Source: Aquipuribacter nitratireducens (GTDB lineage: Bacteria > Actinomycetota > Actinomycetes > Actinomycetales > JBBAYJ01). From it: DNA of 64,000 nt. The position numbers and the translations under genes were made by a program. Location: assembly GCF_037860835.1 (NCBI RefSeq), contig NZ_JBBEOG010000003.1, positions 186,001 to 250,000 on the forward strand, written 5' to 3'. The notes beneath the pieces were generated by a model, which had not been told where the DNA came from, did not search any database, and was given only the letters and a program-made list of their open reading frames with translations. Shown one piece after another: positions 49,070-58,030 of the stretch (the first letter of the stretch is position 1; each line of letters begins with the position of its first letter).

Positions 49070-49537
49070 GTGAGCCTCCCCGACGTGCGGCCGTTCACCG
49101 ACGAGACCGACCGGACCATCGTCCGGGCCCTCGCGGAGGACGGCCGCATGTCGTACACCGACCTCGGCCGCCTCACCGGGCTGTCGACGTCGGCGGTGCA
49201 CCACCGCGTGCGCCGGCTCGAGCAGCGCGGTGTCGTGCGCGGCTACCGCGCGGTCCTCGACCCGACCGCGCTCGGCCTGCCGCTCACGGCCTTCATCGCC
49301 CTCACCCCGCTCGACCAGTCCGCCCCGGACGACGTTCCGGAGCGGCTGCGGGACCTCGTCGAGGTCGAGGCGATCCACGCGGTCGCGGGGGAGGCGAACT
49401 ACCTCATCAAGGTGCGGGTCGACACCCCGCCGCACCTGGAGGACCTCCTCACGACGATCCGTCAGAAGGCGGGCGTGTCGACGCGGACGACGGTCGTCCT
49501 CAGCACGCCGTACGAGGACCGGCCGCCACGCGTGTGA
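49070..49537 (+). CDS. Lrp/AsnC family transcriptional regulator
   Basis: 155 residues: N-terminal winged helix (TDRTIVRALAEDGRMSYTDLGRLTGLSTSAVHHRVRRLEQRGVVRG) and C-terminal RAM/AsnC ligand-binding domain with VEAIHAVAGEANYLIKVRVD. Such regulators sense amino acids and often control adjacent catabolic genes. It lies 7 bp from the stop of the convergent kamA gene, which makes it the likely local regulator of the lysine genes (inference). GTG 49070 is 7 nt after TAGGCT (49057-49062), so leaderless. Confidence 0.92.
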   Translation: MSLPDVRPFTDETDRTIVRALAEDGRMSYTDLGRLTGLSTSAVHHRVRRLEQRGVVRGYRAVLDPTALGLPLTAFIALTPLDQSAPDDVPERLRDLVEVEAIHAVAGEANYLIKVRVDTPPHLEDLLTTIRQKAGVSTRTTVVLSTPYEDRPPRV

Positions 49538-49544
49538 CGTGGGC

Positions 49545-50945
49545 TCAGGTCGCGACGAGGCTGCCGAGCCCGGCGTCGAGGCGCTGCCGCTCCGCCCACC
49601 ACCGCCGGCCGTCCTCCGGCAGGGTGTCGATCGGGTCGTAGTACGGGTACGTGCGCTCGAGCGCGTCCGGGTCGTCGGCCTCCACGGAGGTCCGGTAGTT
49701 CTTCGTCCACTCGCTGATGCCGCGCACCCGGTCGTAGGAGTGGACCTGGTGCACCCAGCGCTTCCCGACGAACGGCACGTCGCACACGATCCGCGGCGTC
49801 GCGAACCCCGGCAGGTAGCCCATGATCGCGTGCTGCAGGTCCTGGGCGGCCGCGAGCGAGGTCCGCCAGTGCTCCGCCGCCGGGATCATGTCGCACATGT
49901 AGAAGTAGTACGGCGTGATCGACGCCTCGTCCTGCAGGCCGAAGCAGAGGTCGAGCAGCGCCTCGGGGGTGTCGTTGACGCCCCGCATGAGGACGCCCTG
50001 GTTGCGGACGTCGCGCACCCCCGCCTCGAGCATCGTCCGTGCCGCCTCCGCGACGAGCGGGGTGAGGGACGACGCGGCGTTGACGTGGGTGTGGATCGCG
50101 AGGGACACCCCGCGGGCGCGAGCCGTGCCCGCGACCCGCGTGACCCCCTCGACGACCGCGGGGGACAGCCAGTGCTGCGGCAGGCCCATGAGCGCCTTGC
50201 TCGCGAGGCGGATGTCGCGGATGTTGTCGATCCGCAGGAGCTCGTCGAGGAACGCCTCCAGGCGCGGCCACGGCATGTTCGCGACGTCCCCGCCGGACAC
50301 GACGACGTCGCGGACCTGCGGGGAACGGCGCAGGTGGTCGAGCATGTCCTGCAGCCGGTTCGCGGGCTTGAGCGTGAACTTCAGCTTCTCGACCTGCGGG
50401 GTCGACGTGCCGACGAGGTCCATGCGGGTGCAGTGACCGCAGTACTGCGGGCACGTCGGGAGGATCTCCGCGAGGACCTTCGTCGGGTACCGGTGGGTGA
50501 GGCCCTCGACGGCCCACATGTCGTGCTCGTGCAGGGAGTCGCGGCTGGCGAACGGGTGGGACGCCCACTCGGTGAACCGGTCGGTGAGCAGCGGCAGCAT
50601 GTAGCGGCGCACCGGGTCGGCGCGGAACGCCTCGGACCAGGCCGCGCCCGCGGCCGGCACGCCCTCGTCCCCGGTGCCCGGGACGATCGTGTTGAGCATC
50701 TGCGGGGGCAGGAGCATCGACATCGTCGCCCGCTGCTGCTGGTCGGCGACGAGGTCGTCGTAGACGTCGTCGGTCAGCAGGTCGCCCATGACGTCGCGCA
50801 GCTGCGCGGCCGTCTTCACGCAGTGGCTGCGCTGCCACTGCACGTCCCGCCACTGCTCGTCCGTCACGTCGCGCCACCCCGGGACACGACGCCAGTCGGG
50901 CTCGACGAGGGGACGGCGGGCGTAGGAGTACGGCTGCAGGCTCAC
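49545..50945 (-). CDS. kamA: KamA family radical SAM lysine 2,3-aminomutase
   Basis: Converts L-lysine to beta-lysine with SAM, a 4Fe-4S cluster and PLP. 466 residues. The cluster motif is TCPQYCGHCTRMD (C-x3-C-x2-C). The Asp residues that bind the epsilon-amino group of lysine in characterised enzymes are both kept, in RGVNDTPEALL and YMCDMIPAAEHWRTS, and the SSL-type PLP region is in VVSGGDVANMPW. GTG 50945 was chosen because TACGCT (reverse, 50958-50953) lies exactly 7 nt upstream; the ATG at 50981 would start inside the divergent promoter. It is divergent from kdd and convergent with the Lrp gene. Confidence 0.9.
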   Translation of the reverse strand: MSLQPYSYARRPLVEPDWRRVPGWRDVTDEQWRDVQWQRSHCVKTAAQLRDVMGDLLTDDVYDDLVADQQQRATMSMLLPPQMLNTIVPGTGDEGVPAAGAAWSEAFRADPVRRYMLPLLTDRFTEWASHPFASRDSLHEHDMWAVEGLTHRYPTKVLAEILPTCPQYCGHCTRMDLVGTSTPQVEKLKFTLKPANRLQDMLDHLRRSPQVRDVVVSGGDVANMPWPRLEAFLDELLRIDNIRDIRLASKALMGLPQHWLSPAVVEGVTRVAGTARARGVSLAIHTHVNAASSLTPLVAEAARTMLEAGVRDVRNQGVLMRGVNDTPEALLDLCFGLQDEASITPYYFYMCDMIPAAEHWRTSLAAAQDLQHAIMGYLPGFATPRIVCDVPFVGKRWVHQVHSYDRVRGISEWTKNYRTSVEADDPDALERTYPYYDPIDTLPEDGRRWWAERQRLDAGLGSLVAT

Positions 50946-50952
50946 AGACGGC

Positions 50953-51012
50953 AGCGTATAGGCGAATCTTCGGTCCGTCATGCACCAGACGACGGATGTT
51001 TGCGTCTACGCT
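50953..51012. promoter_or_regulatory. Mirror-image divergent kamA/kdd promoters with central inverted repeat
   Basis: Each strand carries TACGCT exactly 7 nt before a GTG start (kamA box 50958-50953, start 50945; kdd box 51007-51012, start 51020). Between them TCCGTC (50974-50979) and GACGGA (50991-50996) form an inverted repeat centred at the midpoint, where both -35 regions would lie. The interval is AT-richer than its surroundings. An Lrp-type operator is a fair guess. Confidence 0.6.
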
Positions 51013-51019
51013 GCCCTTC

Positions 51020-52081
51020 GTGCGTGAGATGACGGTTCCCGAGTCGCCGGTCGGGGCGCACCGCGTGCTCGAGCCCGCAGGCGTCCTGCCGCAGGCCGCC
51101 CAGCGCCTCGACACCGACCCCGCGCTGTGGCCCGGCGAGGTGCGCGTCCGCGTCGACCGTCTCAACCTCGACGCGGCGAGCGCCCACCAGCTGCGTCGGG
51201 CCGCCGACGGCGACCCCGACGCCGTCCGTCAGCAGGTGCTGGGGATCGTCCGCAGCCGCGGGAAGATGCACAACCCCGTGACCGGGTCCGGCGGCATGCT
51301 CCTCGGCACGGTCGAGGAGGTCGGCCCGCAGAGCCCGCTCGGGCTGCGCGTCGGACAGCGGGTCGCGACGCTCGTCAGCCTCACGCTCACCCCGCTCGCG
51401 CTGGGGGACGGGCTGGAGCGGTGGGACGGCCGCGGTGAGCAGGTCCCCACCAGCGGCCACGCGATCCTCTTCTCGCGCAGCATCGCGGCGGTCGTGCCCG
51501 ACGACCTGCCGGAGGAGACCGTGCTCGCGGTCATGGACGTGTGCGGAGCCCCGGCCCTCGTCGACCGGGTCGTCCGCGACCGGCTCGGGCGCGGGCTGCG
51601 CGCCGACGTCGCCGTCCTCGGGGCGGCCGGGAAGTCCGGTGCCCTGTCGCTCGCCGCGGCGCGGGCTGCCGGCGCGGGGCGGCTCGTCGGGCTCGTGCCG
51701 GTCGAGGAGGAGGCGACGCGCCTGCGCGCGTCCGGCCTGGCCGACGACGTCGTCCTCGCGGACGCCACCGACCCCCTGGCCGCGGCCGAGGCCGTCCGCG
51801 GGGCGCTCGACGGGCACGGCGCCGACGTCACGGTCGTCTGCGTCGACGTGCCCGGCTGCGAGCACGGCGCCGTCCTCGCGACCGACGACGGCGGCACGGT
51901 CGTCTTCTTCTCCATGGCGACGTCGTTCAGCGCCGCCGCCCTCGGCGCCGAGGGGCTCGCCGCCGACGTCACCATGCTCGTCGGCAACGGCTACACGCCC
52001 GGCCACGCGGAGCTCGCCCTCACGCTGTACCGGGACTCGGCGGGGGTGCAGCAGCTGCTCGGCGCGAGGATGGGCGCATGA
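51020..52081 (+). CDS. kdd: L-erythro-3,5-diaminohexanoate dehydrogenase
   Basis: NAD(P)-dependent enzyme that oxidatively deaminates 3,5-diaminohexanoate to 5-amino-3-oxohexanoate. 353 residues. Family landmarks are GAHRVLEPAGVLPQAAQRLD, RGKMHNPVTGSGGMLLGTVEEVG, ATLVSLTLTPL, SGHAILFSRSIAAVVPDDLPE and the Rossmann-like VAVLGAAGKSGALSLAAARAAG. GTG 51020 is set by TACGCT 7 nt upstream, not the longer ATG at 50996. Its stop overlaps the amidohydrolase start by 4 nt (ATGA). Confidence 0.9.
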   Translation: MREMTVPESPVGAHRVLEPAGVLPQAAQRLDTDPALWPGEVRVRVDRLNLDAASAHQLRRAADGDPDAVRQQVLGIVRSRGKMHNPVTGSGGMLLGTVEEVGPQSPLGLRVGQRVATLVSLTLTPLALGDGLERWDGRGEQVPTSGHAILFSRSIAAVVPDDLPEETVLAVMDVCGAPALVDRVVRDRLGRGLRADVAVLGAAGKSGALSLAAARAAGAGRLVGLVPVEEEATRLRASGLADDVVLADATDPLAAAEAVRGALDGHGADVTVVCVDVPGCEHGAVLATDDGGTVVFFSMATSFSAAALGAEGLAADVTMLVGNGYTPGHAELALTLYRDSAGVQQLLGARMGA

Positions 52082-53754
52082 GCACAGCCACGAGGACGCT
52101 GTACCGCCACGGCGCCGTCTACAGCCCCGCCGACCCGTACGCCCAGGCCCTCCTCGTCGAGGACGGCACCGTCGCGTGGGTGGGCGGCGACGAGGCCGCG
52201 GACTCCCTCGCGGGTGGCCTGGGCGCGGACGACCGGGTCGTCGACCTCGCCGGTGCTCTCGTGACCCCGGCGTTCGTCGACGGCCACGTCCACTGCTTCG
52301 ACACCGGCCTGCTCGCCACCGGGGTCGACCTCACCGGTGTCCGGTCGGTGGGTGCGCTGCTCGACGCCGTGGCCGCCTTCGCCGCTGCGCACCCCGGCGA
52401 GCGGGTCCTCGGCCACGGCTGGGACGAGACCCTCCTCGCCGAGGGCCGACCGCCGACGTCGGAGGAGCTGGAGCGGGCGGCCCCGGGGGCGCTCGTCTAC
52501 CTCAGCCGGGTCGACGTCCACTCCGCGCTCGTCTCCCGCCGCCTCGTCGACGAGGCCGGAGCCGCCGGCCTGCCGGGCCACGACGGCAGCGCGCGCGTCG
52601 AGCGGGACGCCCACCACCTCACCCGCTCCCACGCGCGCGACGTCCCCGCCGGGGTGCGGGCCGCCGCCCACGAGGCCGCCCTGCGGGCCGCCCTCGCCGC
52701 CGGGATCGGCACGCTCCACGAGATGTCGGGGCCGTTCATCGGCGGTCCCGACGACCTGCGGGTGCTCGTCGGCGTCGCCGCGGAGGTCGGGGCGCGGGTC
52801 GTGCCGTACTGGGGCGAGGCCGCCACCGACGCCGACCACGCCCGCGCCCTCGTCGCCGGGCTCGGCCTGCCCGCGGGCGTCCGGCTCGCCGGCCTCGCCG
52901 GGGACCTCTCCGCCGACGGCTCCATCGGGTCGCGCACCGCCGCGTTCCGCGAGCCCTACGCCGACAACGACCCGGCGCACCCGACGCACGCCGGCCACGC
53001 GTACCTGTCCGCCGACGTCATGGCCGACCACCTCGTCGCGTGCGTCGGGGCAGGGGTGCAGCCGGGGTTCCACGTCATCGGCGACGCGGCCCTCGACACC
53101 GTGCTCGAGGCGCTCGACCGCGCTGCGGACCGGCTCGGGGGGGCGCGGCTCGCGACGTCGCGGGTGCGGCTGGAGCACGTCGAGACCGCCGACGACGCAC
53201 AGGTCGCCGCCCTCGCACGGCACGGCGTCGTCGCGAGCATGCAGCCGCTGTTCGACGCGCTGTGGGGCGGCGACGACAGCCTCTACGCCCGCAGGCTCGG
53301 GGCGCACCGCCGTCTCAACCGCGTCGGTGCCGTCGCCGCCGCCGGGATCCCGCTCGCCTTCGGCTCCGACTCCCCGGTCACGCCCCTCGACCCGTGGGGG
53401 ACCGTCGCGGCGGCGGCGTTCCACCACGACGAGGCCGAGCGGATCAGCGCCCGCGCCGCCTTCGCCGCGTCGACCCGTGGTGCGCACCGGGCGGCCTTCG
53501 ACGACCGCCACCTCGCCGACGCCGCCGGTGTCCTCGTGCCGGGCGCGCCCGCGGACCTCGCGGTGTGGGAGGCCGGCGAGCTCGTCGTCCAGGCGCCCGA
53601 CGACCGCATCCAGGCGTGGAGCACCGACCCCCGCTCCCGGGTGCCCGCCCTGCCCGACCTCGGCCCCGGGTCCCTACGGCCGCGGTGCCTGCGCACGGTC
53701 GTCGCGGGCCGGACCCGCCACGACACCGGCGAGCTCATCGAGGCGGGCGCATGA
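52078..53754 (+). CDS. Amidohydrolase family 3 (YtcJ-like) metal-dependent hydrolase
   Basis: 558 residues of the amidohydrolase superfamily, YtcJ/exoenzyme-regulatory type. The first metal site is DGHVHC, the second is in GFHVIGDAALD, LEHVE carries another His, and FGSDSPVTPLDPWG holds the catalytic Asp. These enzymes hydrolyse N-acyl or imide bonds of amines and amino acids. It is translationally coupled to kdd (ATGA overlap), suggesting use in lysine or lysine-derived substrate breakdown, although no amidohydrolase step is known in the classical route. Confidence 0.88.
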   Translation: MSTATRTLYRHGAVYSPADPYAQALLVEDGTVAWVGGDEAADSLAGGLGADDRVVDLAGALVTPAFVDGHVHCFDTGLLATGVDLTGVRSVGALLDAVAAFAAAHPGERVLGHGWDETLLAEGRPPTSEELERAAPGALVYLSRVDVHSALVSRRLVDEAGAAGLPGHDGSARVERDAHHLTRSHARDVPAGVRAAAHEAALRAALAAGIGTLHEMSGPFIGGPDDLRVLVGVAAEVGARVVPYWGEAATDADHARALVAGLGLPAGVRLAGLAGDLSADGSIGSRTAAFREPYADNDPAHPTHAGHAYLSADVMADHLVACVGAGVQPGFHVIGDAALDTVLEALDRAADRLGGARLATSRVRLEHVETADDAQVAALARHGVVASMQPLFDALWGGDDSLYARRLGAHRRLNRVGAVAAAGIPLAFGSDSPVTPLDPWGTVAAAAFHHDEAERISARAAFAASTRGAHRAAFDDRHLADAAGVLVPGAPADLAVWEAGELVVQAPDDRIQAWSTDPRSRVPALPDLGPGSLRPRCLRTVVAGRTRHDTGELIEAGA

Positions 53755-53777
53755 CCCGCCGGTGCCGTGGCGCTCGC

Positions 53778-54218
53778 TCACCCCAGCTGGCCGCGCAGCG
53801 CCCCCGCCGGGTAGGTGGCGTTGTGGAGGTTGACGTAGTAGCCCGCCGGGTCGCGGATGATCGCGAGGGCGAGGTCGCGGTCCACGGCGACGCACGCGCG
53901 CGCGGTGCCGTCGACGACCTGCGGCGCGAGGTTCACCACGACCGGGCCGGCCACGTCGGCCGTCCCGACGTGGATGTGGCCGGCGAGGACCGGGTCCACG
54001 TCGGCCACGGTGATCGTGTAGCAGACCTCGCCGCGGCCGGGGTTGATCGTGAGCCCGGCCGTCCCGGAGCCGTCGGGGTCGCCCGGTCCGGGCACCTCCG
54101 CGGCACCGAGGAGGTCGACGTCGAAGGGACGGCCGCCGGCGGCGGCGGGAGCGGACAGCGCGACAGCGGCGGCGGCCGCGGCGGCCGCGGCGGCCACGAG
54201 GGCGAGGGATCGGCGCAT
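53778..54218 (-). CDS. Secreted CHRD-domain protein
   Basis: 146 residues. Signal peptide (an unusually long Ala run after RRSLALVAA, cleaved near residue 27 at APAAAGG), then a CHRD domain: FDVDLLGAAEVPGPGDPDGSGTAGLTINPGRGEVCYTITVADVDPVLAGHIHVG, and YYVNLHNATYPAGALRGQLG at the end. CHRD domains occur in chordin and in many bacterial secreted proteins of unknown role. AGAAGGAGA lies upstream of the ATG. It is antisense between the amidohydrolase and kamD genes and so interrupts the lysine operon. Confidence 0.88.
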   Translation of the reverse strand: MRRSLALVAAAAAAAAAAVALSAPAAAGGRPFDVDLLGAAEVPGPGDPDGSGTAGLTINPGRGEVCYTITVADVDPVLAGHIHVGTADVAGPVVVNLAPQVVDGTARACVAVDRDLALAIIRDPAGYYVNLHNATYPAGALRGQLG

Positions 54219-54364
54219 GGGGGGGTCTCCTTCTGCGAAGGGGGCGTTGACGGCCCGGCGTCCTCGTCGGGCCGCGCGTCCCGAGCACGAGCGTCCTCCG
54301 TGCCGTCGTGGCGCGCCAGAGCCGCCCGCACCCCGTCCGCACCACCCGGAGCAGGAGCACGAGC

Positions 54365-55975
54365 GTGAACCCGTCCCCGCAGCGCCACCGCCCGCGTCTC
54401 GACCTCGACCCCACGGTGGTCGCGCACGCCCGCAGCCTCGCGGTGCGGGCCGCTGCGCCGGTCGTCGACCTCGCGCGCACCCGCACGACCGTCAGCGTGG
54501 AGCGAGCCGTGCTCCGGATGGCCGGGCTCGAGGGCGCCGACCCCGACGGCATCCCGTGGGCGAACCACCTCGTCGACGCGGTCCGCGCCGGCGTCGGGCT
54601 CGAGCAGGGCGTCGCCCTCCCGGTGTGGGACGCCCTCGCCCGCGGCGAGGCCCCCGACCTCACCCGCCTCGCGCAGCGCGCGGCGGCCGGCGCCGTCCGC
54701 TTCGACCTGCCCGGGGGCAGTGCGCGCCGGGACGCGCTCACGGGGGCGCGCGCGGCGGCGGCCGCCGGCGTCGCGCGCGTCGACGCGGCCCGCGCCGACC
54801 GCGACGAGCTCGTCGCCCGCATCGGCGACCCGCCGCAGCGGCCGTGGATCTACCTCATCGTCGCGACCGGCGACATCTACGAGGACGTGCCGCAGGCGCA
54901 GGCCGCCGCCCGCGCCGGGGCGGACGTCATCGCCGTCATCCGCTCGACCGGGCAGTCGCTGCTCGACTACGTGCCCGAGGGCGCGACCCGGGAGGGCTAC
55001 GCCGGGACGTACGCCACGGCGGAGAACTTCCGCATCATGCGGGCCGCTCTCGACGAGGTGTCGCACGAGGTCGGCCGCTACGTGCGGCTCACGAACTACG
55101 CGAGCGGCCTCTGCATGCCGGAGATCGCGACGCTCGCCGGTCTCAACCGCCTCGACATGATGCTCAACGACTCGATGTACGGGATCCTCTTCCGCGACAT
55201 CAACCCGCTGCGGACCTTCGTCGACCAACGCTTCTCCCGCCAGGTGCACGCCCGCGCCGGCATCATCATCAACACCGGCGAGGACAACTACCTCACGACC
55301 GCGGACGCCGTCGACGCCGCCCACACCGTCACGGTGTCGCAGCTGCTCAACGAGACGTTCGCCCACGAGGCCGGGCTGCCCGACCACCTGCTCGGTCTGG
55401 GCCACGCGTTCGAGATCGACCCGGAGGTGCCGGAGTCGTTCCGCCTCGAGCTCGCGCACGCCCTGCTCGCCCGGACCCTGTTCCCCGACGCGCCGCTCAA
55501 GTGGATGCCGCCCACCCGGCACATGACCGGGGACGTGTTCCGGGGCTACCTCCTCGACGGGTTCTTCAACCTCGTCGGGTCGATGACCGACCAGGACATC
55601 CTCCTCGTCGGGATGATGACGGAGGCCGTCGTGACGCCGTGGCTGTCCGACCGCGACCTCGCCCTGCAGAACGTCCGCTACGTCCAGCGCGCGGCGGGCC
55701 GGCTGGGGGAGGACTTCGTGCCCGCCCCCGACGGGCTCGTCGCGACCCGCGCCCGCCAGGTCCTCGGCGAGGCCGTCGACCTCCTCGAGCGCATCACGGC
55801 GACCGACGGCGGGCTGCTCGCCGCCATCGCGGAGGGGACCTTCGGCGGGATGCGCCGCCCGGCCGACGGCGGCCGTGGCCTCGACGGCGTCGTCGTGCGC
55901 GCCGACGACTACGTCAACCCCGTGTCGGACCTCCTCGAGGGCGGCGTGCCGGTGCACGAGGAGGTGCTCGCGTGA
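54365..55975 (+). CDS. kamD: Lysine 5,6-aminomutase alpha subunit
   Basis: 536 residues of the KamD family, the large catalytic subunit of the adenosylcobalamin/PLP enzyme that shifts the terminal amino group of beta-lysine to C5. Recognisable blocks are WIYLIVATGDIYEDVPQAQAAA, GADVIAVIRSTGQSLLDYVPEG, RLTNYASGLCMPEIA, MLNDSMYGILFRDINPLRTFVDQRFSR and FFNLVGSMTDQDILLVGMMTEA. The GTG start follows AGCAGGAG by 7 nt; the longer form from 54308 adds a basic leader with no family similarity. It is coupled to kamE through a 4-nt overlap. Confidence 0.95.
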   Translation: MNPSPQRHRPRLDLDPTVVAHARSLAVRAAAPVVDLARTRTTVSVERAVLRMAGLEGADPDGIPWANHLVDAVRAGVGLEQGVALPVWDALARGEAPDLTRLAQRAAAGAVRFDLPGGSARRDALTGARAAAAAGVARVDAARADRDELVARIGDPPQRPWIYLIVATGDIYEDVPQAQAAARAGADVIAVIRSTGQSLLDYVPEGATREGYAGTYATAENFRIMRAALDEVSHEVGRYVRLTNYASGLCMPEIATLAGLNRLDMMLNDSMYGILFRDINPLRTFVDQRFSRQVHARAGIIINTGEDNYLTTADAVDAAHTVTVSQLLNETFAHEAGLPDHLLGLGHAFEIDPEVPESFRLELAHALLARTLFPDAPLKWMPPTRHMTGDVFRGYLLDGFFNLVGSMTDQDILLVGMMTEAVVTPWLSDRDLALQNVRYVQRAAGRLGEDFVPAPDGLVATRARQVLGEAVDLLERITATDGGLLAAIAEGTFGGMRRPADGGRGLDGVVVRADDYVNPVSDLLEGGVPVHEEVLA

Positions 55976-56757
55976 GCGCGCTGCCCGAGGGCGTCCCGCC
56001 CGTGGTCCGCCCGTACGGCGACACGACGGGCGACGGCATGGTCCAGGTGTCGTTCACGCTGCCGCTCCCGCCGGGCAAGCGGGCGGAGGGCGCCGCGGCG
56101 CAGCTCGCGCGGCGCATGGGCATCGACCAGCCGATGGTGGTCCACGCCAAGGGGATCGGGGACCGGTACACGTTCTTCGTCGTCTATGGCCCCGTGTCGC
56201 ACGTCGTCGACGTCGCGGCCGTCGAGGTCGTCCAGCGCGAGTACCCGCTGCTCACGCCGAAGGAGACGAACGCCGCGATCCGCGACGCGCTCCAGCGCAA
56301 GCTCGTCGTGGTCGGAGCCTGCATCGGCACCGACGCCCACACCGTCGGCATCGACGCCATCCTCAACGTCAAGGGGTGGGCGGGGGAGAAGGGCCTCGAG
56401 TACTACCGCGAGATGAAGGTCGTGAACCTCGGCGCCCAGGTGTCGGTTCCCGACCTCGTCGAACGAGCCCGCGCCGAGCGGGCCGACGCCGTCCTCGTGA
56501 GCCAGGTCGTCACCCAGCGGGACGCCCACGTCCACAACACGACGACGATGTCCGCGGCGTTCCGGGAGGCGTTCCCCGCCACGCGCCGGCCCCTGCTCGT
56601 CGTCGGCGGACCGCGTTTCGACGAGACCGGCGCCGCGGCCCTCGGCGTCGACCGCGTCTTCGGTCGCGGCACCACCCCCGGCGAGGTCGCGAGCTACCTC
56701 GTCCACGCCGTCGCCGGGCGCTCGGGGGGCCCGGCAGGACAGGAGGCCCCCGCATGA
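55972..56757 (+). CDS. kamE: Lysine 5,6-aminomutase beta subunit
   Basis: 261 residues, the cobalamin-binding subunit. The D-x-H-x-x-G base-off B12 motif is in GTDAHTVGIDAILN (Asp121, His123, Gly126), and the following ILNVKGW contains the Lys (134) that forms the PLP Schiff base in characterised enzymes. The Rossmann-like domain continues with KVVNLGAQVSVPDLVERA and VVGGPRFDE. The GTG overlaps the kamD stop (GTGA), and the stop overlaps kal (ATGA), so three subunits and the lyase should be made together. Confidence 0.95.
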   Translation: MSALPEGVPPVVRPYGDTTGDGMVQVSFTLPLPPGKRAEGAAAQLARRMGIDQPMVVHAKGIGDRYTFFVVYGPVSHVVDVAAVEVVQREYPLLTPKETNAAIRDALQRKLVVVGACIGTDAHTVGIDAILNVKGWAGEKGLEYYREMKVVNLGAQVSVPDLVERARAERADAVLVSQVVTQRDAHVHNTTTMSAAFREAFPATRRPLLVVGGPRFDETGAAALGVDRVFGRGTTPGEVASYLVHAVAGRSGGPAGQEAPA

Positions 56758-57137
56758 GCGACCCCCGGGTCGGCACCACCGTCACCCACCGCCGCTACGT
56801 CCACCACGGCGACGCCCACTACGGCGGCGGGCTCGTCGACGGCGCGTTCTCGCTGAAGCTGTTCGGCGACGTCGCCACCGAGCTGTGCATCCGCACCGAC
56901 GGCGACGAGGGCCTGTTCGCCGGGTACGCCGAGGTCCGCTTCCTCGACGCGGTCCGCGCCGGCGACGTCCTCGAGGTGAGCGCCGAGCTCGTCCGCGTGG
57001 GCCGCCGCAGCCGCGAGGTGGCGTTCGAGGCGCGCGTCGTGTGCCGCGCGCGTCCCGAGGTGTCCCCGTCGGCGTCCGCGGCGCTCGACCCGCCGCTCGT
57101 CGTCACCCGCGCGACGGGCACGGTCGTCGTCCCGTGA
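56754..57137 (+). CDS. kal: 3-aminobutyryl-CoA ammonia-lyase-like hotdog protein
   Basis: 127 residues with a hotdog fold. The segment DAHYGGGLVDGAFSLKLFGDVATEL at about 20-44 and GDEGLFAGYAEVRFLDAVRAGDVLEVSAELVRVGRRSREVAFEARVV fit Kal, the enzyme that removes ammonia from 3-aminobutyryl-CoA to give crotonyl-CoA in lysine degradation. Its position after kamDE supports this against a thioesterase. Starts and ends overlap its neighbours by 4 nt. Confidence 0.88.
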   Translation: MSDPRVGTTVTHRRYVHHGDAHYGGGLVDGAFSLKLFGDVATELCIRTDGDEGLFAGYAEVRFLDAVRAGDVLEVSAELVRVGRRSREVAFEARVVCRARPEVSPSASAALDPPLVVTRATGTVVVP

Positions 57138-58030
57138 CGACCGTCGTGTGGGCCACGTGCGCCGAGCTGCCCGACGGGGACCCCGACGACCACCTCGCCC
57201 TGCCCGCGATGGCCGAGGTGGGGCTCGACGTCCGCTACCAGGTGTGGGACGACCCGTCGGCCGACTGGTCCGCGCCGACCGTCGTCCGCAGCACGTGGGA
57301 CTACGCGACGCGGCGCGAGGAGTTCCTCGCGTGGTCGGGGACGGTCCCGACGCTGTGGAACCCGGCCGATGTGCTGGCGTGGAGCACGGACAAGACGTAC
57401 CTCGACGAGCTGGCGGCGGCAGGTCTGCCCGTCGCGCCGTCCACCACGGTGCGTCCGGGGGAGCAGGACCGCCTCGACGACGTCGTCGCGGCCGCGCTCG
57501 CCGAGTCCGCGACGGTCGTCGTCAAGCCGACCGTGAGCGCCGGCAGCAAGGACACCCGCCGCCACGGTGACCCCCGTGCCGCCACCGACCACGCCGCCGA
57601 CCTGCTCCGCGCCGGCCGCCCGGTCCTCGTCCAGCCGTACCTCGAGGCCGTCGACACCGACGGGGAGACCGGCCTCGTGGTCGTCGACGGCGTCGTCTCC
57701 CACGTCTTCCGCAAGGGCCAGCTCCTCCACGCCGAGGCCGAGGCGACCCCCGGCCTCTACGCCGTCGAGGACATCCGCGCCCGCGAGGCCACACCGGCGC
57801 AGCGGCGCCTCGCGGCCGACGTGACGGCGTGGCTCGCCGCGCGCTTCCCCGCCCACGCGCCCCTGCTGTACGCCCGCGTCGACACGGTGCCGGGCCCCGA
57901 CGGCGAGCCGGTGCTGCTCGAGCTCGAGCTCACCGAGCCGTCGCTGTGGTTCGTCGCCGACGACAGCGGCGCCTCGACACGTGCCTGGGCGCGGGCGCTG
58001 GCCCAACGGGTGCGTACCCTTCCCGCGTGA
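57134..58030 (+). CDS. ATP-grasp domain protein of unknown substrate
   Basis: 298 residues with an ATP-grasp fold. RSTWDYATRREEFLAW and NPADVLAWSTDKTYLDELAAAGLPVAPSTTV lead into VVVKPTVSAGSKDTRRH (the grasp loop), then VQPYLEAVDTDGETGLVVVDGVVSHVFRKGQ and PVLLELELTEPSLWF with metal ligands. Related stand-alone actinobacterial proteins resemble amino-acid ligases and the DcsG ATP-grasp, but the substrate is unknown. It is translationally coupled to kal (GTGA overlap), so it may act on the amino-acid products of the lysine pathway. Its 3' end contains the lnt promoter. Confidence 0.85.
   Translation: MTTVVWATCAELPDGDPDDHLALPAMAEVGLDVRYQVWDDPSADWSAPTVVRSTWDYATRREEFLAWSGTVPTLWNPADVLAWSTDKTYLDELAAAGLPVAPSTTVRPGEQDRLDDVVAAALAESATVVVKPTVSAGSKDTRRHGDPRAATDHAADLLRAGRPVLVQPYLEAVDTDGETGLVVVDGVVSHVFRKGQLLHAEAEATPGLYAVEDIRAREATPAQRRLAADVTAWLAARFPAHAPLLYARVDTVPGPDGEPVLLELELTEPSLWFVADDSGASTRAWARALAQRVRTLPA
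58015..58020 (+). promoter_or_regulatory. -10 box for lnt inside the ATP-grasp gene
   Basis: TACCCT lies 6 nt before GTG 58027, within the last codons of the preceding gene, whose stop also overlaps the lnt start. lnt-ppm1 can thus be transcribed as a leaderless unit apart from the lysine genes. Confidence 0.6.

What the first reader, a model, noticed from the sequence alone, without database searches (positions are those of the whole stretch)
49070..57137. Lysine 3,5-diaminohexanoate pathway in an actinobacterium, with the cleavage enzyme missing
kamA, kdd, kamD, kamE and kal are all recognisable and most are linked by 4-nt overlaps, next to an Lrp-type regulator. The route is best known from lysine-fermenting anaerobes (Clostridium, Fusobacterium). 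The 3-keto-5-aminohexanoate cleavage enzyme (kce) and CoA transferase needed to complete it are absent from the window, while an amidohydrolase and an ATP-grasp protein occupy the operon. Either these steps are encoded elsewhere, or this lineage uses a different way to split 5-amino-3-oxohexanoate.
Basis: partly seen in the sequence, partly recalled or inferred. Interest (0 to 1): 0.7.

Follow-up and report, generated by a model that had tools for sequence, protein, structure and literature searches.

The report
Complete actinobacterial lysine pathway, cleavage gene elsewhere

Summary
In detail: kamA, kdd, kamD, kamE and kal are at 49545-57137, beside an Lrp-type regulator, and no kce is in the operon. 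The inference of a missing or replaced cleavage step does not hold. The same genome has exactly one BKACE (DUF849) gene, on another contig next to ygfZ. It matches the Kce family best, keeps every recalled Kce active-site position (one Thr-to-Ser change), including the Glu that separates Kce from other BKACEs, and its orthologues occur where kamD occurs: in 396 genomes of the class, 64 have kamD, 64 have this kce, 63 have both. In Glycomyces it overlaps kamA by 4 nt; in three other lineages it adjoins kdd and/or kal. A 3-oxoacid CoA-transferase and thiolases are also present. The operon's amidohydrolase is not a substitute: its orthologue stays beside lnt, ppm1-like or rbpA genes in nine relatives that lack kam. 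The ATP-grasp gene is confined to the genus. Best reading: a complete lysine-to-acetyl-CoA route, of the kind known from fermenters, widespread in Actinomycetes, with kce encoded in trans. Function is inferred; nothing was assayed. The breadth of the actinobacterial version and its divergent KamA are the only mildly novel parts.

The parts
49070..49537 (+). Lrp/AsnC-family regulator, convergent with kamA
   Evidence: PF13404, PF01037; conserved beside kamA in many relatives
49545..50981 (-). kamA, divergent lysine 2,3-aminomutase (radical SAM)
   Evidence: best NCBIfam TIGR03820 160 bits, below cut-off; aligned to 2a5h with CxxxCxxC, the Arg after it and both Asp of the lysine pocket
50996..52081 (+). 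kdd, L-erythro-3,5-diaminohexanoate dehydrogenase
   Evidence: NF052381 251 bits, above cut-off
52078..53754 (+). Amidohydro_3 (YtcJ-like) amidohydrolase; syntenic neighbour, probably not part of the pathway
   Evidence: PF07969; orthologues in kam-less relatives beside lnt, ppm1-like or rbpA genes; nearest solved folds 3icj and 3igh, uncharacterised hydrolases
53778..54218 (-). CHRD-domain protein inserted between amidohydrolase and kamD
   Evidence: PF07452; absent in both same-genus relatives at this place
54308..55975 (+). [quoted passage not shown]
   Evidence: NF052384 681 bits, above cut-off
55972..56757 (+). [quoted passage not shown]
   Evidence: NF052385 344 bits, above cut-off; PF16554 and PF02310
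56754..57137 (+). kal, 3-aminobutyryl-CoA ammonia-lyase
   Evidence: NF052388 185 bits, above cut-off
57134..58030 (+). DcsG-like ATP-grasp protein, genus-specific passenger between kal and lnt
   Evidence: NF058666 222 bits, below cut-off 360; found in the kam loci of own genus only

Best explanation
The locus encodes most of a complete catabolic route: L-lysine to beta-lysine (KamA), to 3,5-diaminohexanoate (KamDE, adenosylcobalamin), to 5-amino-3-oxohexanoate (Kdd). The cleavage with acetyl-CoA to 3-aminobutyryl-CoA plus acetoacetate is done by an ordinary BKACE-family Kce encoded in trans beside ygfZ (G000:C8:112960-113778). Kal then releases ammonia to give crotonyl-CoA; acetoacetate is activated by the ScoAB CoA-transferase and both halves end as acetyl-CoA through thiolase and beta-oxidation enzymes. 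Shown here: gene identities, the single Kce orthologue, its conserved active-site residues, its co-occurrence and physical linkage with kam genes in other lineages. Inferred: substrates, flux, regulation by the Lrp protein, and use under aerobic conditions.
For: One BKACE gene in the genome, best NCBIfam hit Lys_ferment_KCE (255 bits, next best 185), though below the curated cut-off of 382. Best solved relative is Cloacamonas Kce 2y7d, E 3e-59, clearly ahead of other DUF849. It keeps E14, H46, H48, S82, E143, R226, E230, D231 (T106 is Ser); site 14 is Glu in the candidate and in the kam-associated rows compared except G232, and is not Glu in the other BKACEs compared. Class survey: 64 of 396 with kamD, 64 with the orthologue, 63 shared (Fisher p 3e-71, not corrected for kinship). 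Physical linkage: Glycomyces artemisiae kamA/kce 4-nt overlap; G621 and G748 kdd/kce divergent neighbours and G633 kdd-kal-kce; G091 kdd, kce and kal close together. ScoA and ScoB pass their cut-offs; thiolases present.
Against: The candidate is below the curated cut-off of the KCE equivalog model, as are almost all actinobacterial ones. It is unlinked in this genome, and co-regulation was not tested. G017 and G633 have the orthologue without kamD; G608 has kamD without it. KamA is below its family cut-off. No assay or growth data.
Confidence: 0.92

Rival explanations
1. The cleavage step is missing or replaced: another operon enzyme (the amidohydrolase or the ATP-grasp protein) or an unknown route splits 5-amino-3-oxohexanoate.
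For: No kce in the operon; an amidohydrolase sits between kdd and kamD in many actinobacterial kam loci (48 of 80, some loci cut by contig ends).
Against: A kce orthologue is present and co-occurs in 63 of 64. The amidohydrolase occurs in at least fourteen kam-less relatives, in nine of nine inspected within the same housekeeping neighbourhood, and is absent from many kam loci that have kdd, kamDE and kal. The ATP-grasp gene is genus-specific.
Confidence: 0.03
2. The C8 BKACE acts on some other beta-keto acid and its co-occurrence with kam is incidental.
For: BKACE enzymes are promiscuous (PMC4922564); the score is below the KCE cut-off.
Against: Near one-to-one phylogenetic profile, linkage in four lineages, and the Glu at site 14 shared with Cloacamonas Kce.
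Confidence: 0.03
3. The operon is biosynthetic, making beta-lysine or a 3,5-diaminohexanoate building block, rather than catabolic.
For: In two Streptomyces-type loci (L186, L191) kamA-kdd-kamD-kamE without kal sits beside a stand-alone adenylation-type gene and tailoring genes.
Against: The window has kal, and the genome a kce, which turn the intermediate into CoA esters; no biosynthetic genes lie nearby.
Confidence: 0.02

Closest known systems
Lysine fermentation (3,5-diaminohexanoate) pathway of Fusobacterium nucleatum, Clostridium and Cloacamonas (kamA, kamDE, kdd, kce, kal or kat)
   Same: All activities have a homologue: kamA, kamD, kamE, kdd, kal in the window and kce elsewhere; a CoA-transferase is also present.
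   Different: kce is unlinked, kamA is a divergent subfamily, and the host is an actinobacterium with a ScoAB-type CoA-transferase; the route most likely ends in oxidation to acetyl-CoA rather than butyrate (inference).
Cloacamonas Kce (2y7d to 2y7g), BKACE group acting on 3-keto-5-aminohexanoate
   Same: Best solved relative; zinc and catalytic positions and the site-14 Glu conserved.
   Different: T106 is Ser; the NCBIfam KCE cut-off is not reached.
YtcJ-like Amidohydro_3 hydrolases (3icj, 3igh)
   Same: Fold of the operon amidohydrolase.
   Different: Function unknown in both; conserved with lnt, ppm1-like and rbpA genes, also without kam.

Membership tests
3,5-diaminohexanoate lysine catabolic pathway | kamDE lysine 5,6-aminomutase pair | tested here: met
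   NF052384 and NF052385 above cut-off
3,5-diaminohexanoate lysine catabolic pathway | kdd and kal | tested here: met
   NF052381 and NF052388 above cut-off
3,5-diaminohexanoate lysine catabolic pathway | lysine 2,3-aminomutase KamA | tested here: inconclusive
   below TIGR03820 cut-off, but a 2a5h homologue with cluster and substrate residues kept and conserved in the kam clusters
3,5-diaminohexanoate lysine catabolic pathway | kce in the genome | tested here: met
   single BKACE, best hit KCE, orthologue tracks kamD 63 of 64
3,5-diaminohexanoate lysine catabolic pathway | CoA-transferase for acetoacetate | tested here: met
   ScoA 220 and ScoB 326 bits, above TIGR02429 and TIGR02428 cut-offs; substrate not assayed
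3,5-diaminohexanoate lysine catabolic pathway | conversion of lysine in vivo | not testable with these tools
   needs growth and labelling experiments
Kce (NF052387 equivalog) | score above curated cut-off 382 | tested here: not met
   255 bits; among 397 phylum genomes only one protein passes, so the model seems tuned to fermenters
Kce (KAH-specific BKACE) | zinc and catalytic residues plus site-14 Glu | tested here: met
   roles of the sites partly recalled, E143 and R226 correspond by offset to E171 and R254 of BKACE15 (PMC11961710)
Kce (KAH-specific BKACE) | activity on 5-amino-3-oxohexanoate | not testable with these tools
   needs enzyme assay

The most novel reading that the evidence does not exclude
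About one in six sampled Actinomycetes genomes (64 of 396) carries a complete lysine-to-acetyl-CoA route by way of a radical-SAM and a B12 aminomutase, with a distinct KamA subfamily and kce usually beside ygfZ, used for aerobic lysine respiration rather than fermentation: a lysine catabolic route little recognised in this phylum.
Probability: 0.6. Interest if true: 0.45.

Novelty: new member of a known kind. Interest (0 to 1): 0.25.

Why it matters
It removes a false 'missing step' and gives a rule for annotation: in these Actinomycetes the kce gene usually lies outside the kam operon, often beside ygfZ, and the NCBIfam KCE and AblA cut-offs miss the actinobacterial enzymes. If the route works with oxygen present it would be a common lysine catabolic path in soil actinobacteria.

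Tried and rejected
Amidohydrolase as cleavage or lactam-repair enzyme: considered because it is conserved between kdd and kamD across two classes; rejected as a pathway part because orthologues keep their place in kam-less relatives and many kam loci lack it. Its fold match gave only uncharacterised hydrolases at the top. Looking for kce inside the ten-kilobase flanks of 80 named kam loci found one (Glycomyces), so linkage alone would have been a weak test; the genome-level profile was decisive. Literature searches found no paper in the held library on this pathway in aerobic actinobacteria, which is not proof that none exists; the original Kce structure and BKACE family papers were not held, so some residue roles rest on memory.

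Full report
The window is G000:C3:186001-250000 of a 3.83 Mb, 26-contig genome that is 98.95% complete. Gene calls and family scans confirm lrp, kamA, kdd, kamD, kamE and kal, with Kdd, KamD, KamE and Kal above curated cut-offs. KamA is divergent: 160 bits against a 525-bit cut-off, but homologous to the solved lysine 2,3-aminomutase 2a5h over residues 31-407, with the iron-sulfur motif and the two pocket Asp residues kept (pocket role recalled). The 4-nt overlaps are real. A minus-strand CHRD gene interrupts the run between the amidohydrolase and kamD; the same junction in a same-genus relative is a 4-nt overlap, so the insertion is local.

The supposed gap. A search of the whole genome for BKACE (PF05853) finds one gene, G000:C8:112960-113778, next to ygfZ. 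Its best NCBIfam hit is Lys_ferment_KCE with 255 bits, 70 bits ahead of the next BKACE family, although below the curated 382. Only one of 397 genomes in the phylum has a protein above that cut-off. Its best solved relative is the Cloacamonas Kce 2y7d (E 3e-59), well ahead of other DUF849 structures. Aligned on Kce numbering it keeps E14, H46, H48, S82, E143, R226, E230 and D231, with T106 as Ser. Site 14 is Glu in the candidate, in all four kam-linked lineages, and in the kam-associated rows compared except G232 (Ala), and is not Glu in the other BKACEs. The tree groups the candidate with Cloacamonas Kce and the kam-linked rows apart from other BKACEs with moderate support (87/92).

Association. 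In 59 relatives, 10 of 11 kam-bearing genomes at least 90% complete have a strong BKACE of this type; the exception, G018, is in about 450 contigs. In 397 genomes of the phylum all 18 with full-length KamD have a KCE hit above 250 bits, with the caveat that in G232 the best hit lacks the site-14 Glu and that G124 was not inspected at that site. In 396 genomes of the class, 64 have KamD, 64 have the orthologue and 63 have both; Fisher p is 3e-71, not corrected for shared ancestry, but the pattern runs through some 30 genera, and inside family f18 both genes are present in some genera and both absent in others.

Physical linkage in other lineages. Glycomyces artemisiae: kce overlaps kamA by 4 nt inside the kam cluster. 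G621 and G748: kce lies directly beside kdd, divergently. G633: an operon kdd-kal-kce without kamDE. G091, another lineage of the phylum: kdd, kce and kal close together. These tie the orthologue group to the pathway without relying on sequence score alone.

The remaining steps. A ScoAB-type 3-oxoacid CoA-transferase is in the genome with both subunits above cut-off, as are several thiolases. The cleavage itself uses acetyl-CoA and yields 3-aminobutyryl-CoA and acetoacetate (PMC3149608 and PMC4922564), so no further CoA-transferase is needed for that step.

The two passengers. The amidohydrolase looked interesting because it sits between kdd and kamD in many actinobacterial kam loci. But a survey of relatives finds close orthologues in at least fourteen kam-less genomes, and in all nine fetched the gene stands among the same neighbours that surround the kam operon here, in varying subsets: a helicase, an exonuclease-like gene, lnt, a dolichol-phosphate-mannose-synthase-like gene and rbpA. 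In G017 the kam genes are gone while lrp, amidohydrolase, lnt and the unlinked kce remain. Many Nocardioides kam loci lack it, with kdd directly followed by kamD. It is therefore a neighbour, not a replacement enzyme. The ATP-grasp gene occurs in the kam locus of the own genus only.

Mechanism, marked by status. Shown by sequence: presence and identity of the enzymes. Inferred from family knowledge: lysine to beta-lysine, to 3,5-diaminohexanoate, to 5-amino-3-oxohexanoate, cleavage by Kce in trans, deamination by Kal, activation of acetoacetate by ScoAB. Not shown: flux, oxygen tolerance, regulation by the Lrp protein. That the route is respiratory rather than fermentative is an inference from the taxa that carry it (Nocardioides, Kribbella, Micromonospora, Lentzea and others).

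Verdict. The genes are as reported, the 'missing' enzyme is not missing, and the pathway is an actinobacterial form of a known one.

Noticed in passing
L192 (G633):8057-15076: A kdd-kal-kce operon without kamDE lies next to caprolactamase-like (CapA/CapB or HyuA/HyuB type) genes and a branched-chain-type ABC transporter gene; perhaps a route that feeds 3,5-diaminohexanoate from a lactam or other cyclic amide instead of lysine.
   Followed up: partly
L186:472-15350 (Streptomyces sp. sk2.1) and L191 (G608): kamA-kdd-kamD-kamE without kal or kce sits in a shared cluster with a stand-alone adenylation-type gene, ATP-grasp, cupin, HisC-like aminotransferase, GNAT, methyltransferase and MFS genes; looks like a biosynthetic cluster using a lysine-derived 3,5-diaminohexanoate or 5-amino-3-oxohexanoate unit.
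   Followed up: partly
window:53778-54218: CHRD-domain protein gene inserted on the opposite strand inside the kam operon, absent at this place in both same-genus relatives.
   Followed up: partly
window:57134-58030: DcsG-like ATP-grasp protein, overlapping kal and lnt by 4 nt each, restricted to the own genus at this place; function unknown.
   Followed up: no
L074 (G035):4829-7090: G035 also carries an OraE-like ornithine 4,5-aminomutase-type gene apart from kamDE.
   Followed up: no
L199 (G017): Relative that lacks kamA, kdd and kamDE-kal but keeps lrp, the amidohydrolase and the unlinked kce, like a recent pathway loss.
   Followed up: partly
L138: Contig labelled Spirochaetaceae MAG carries an actinobacterial-type kam cluster (75% KamD identity); probably a binning error.
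   Followed up: no
L082 and L096 (G232): Kam cluster with a different KamA (about 30% identical) and rearranged gene order; best BKACE lacks the site-14 Glu, so its kce is not identified.
   Followed up: no
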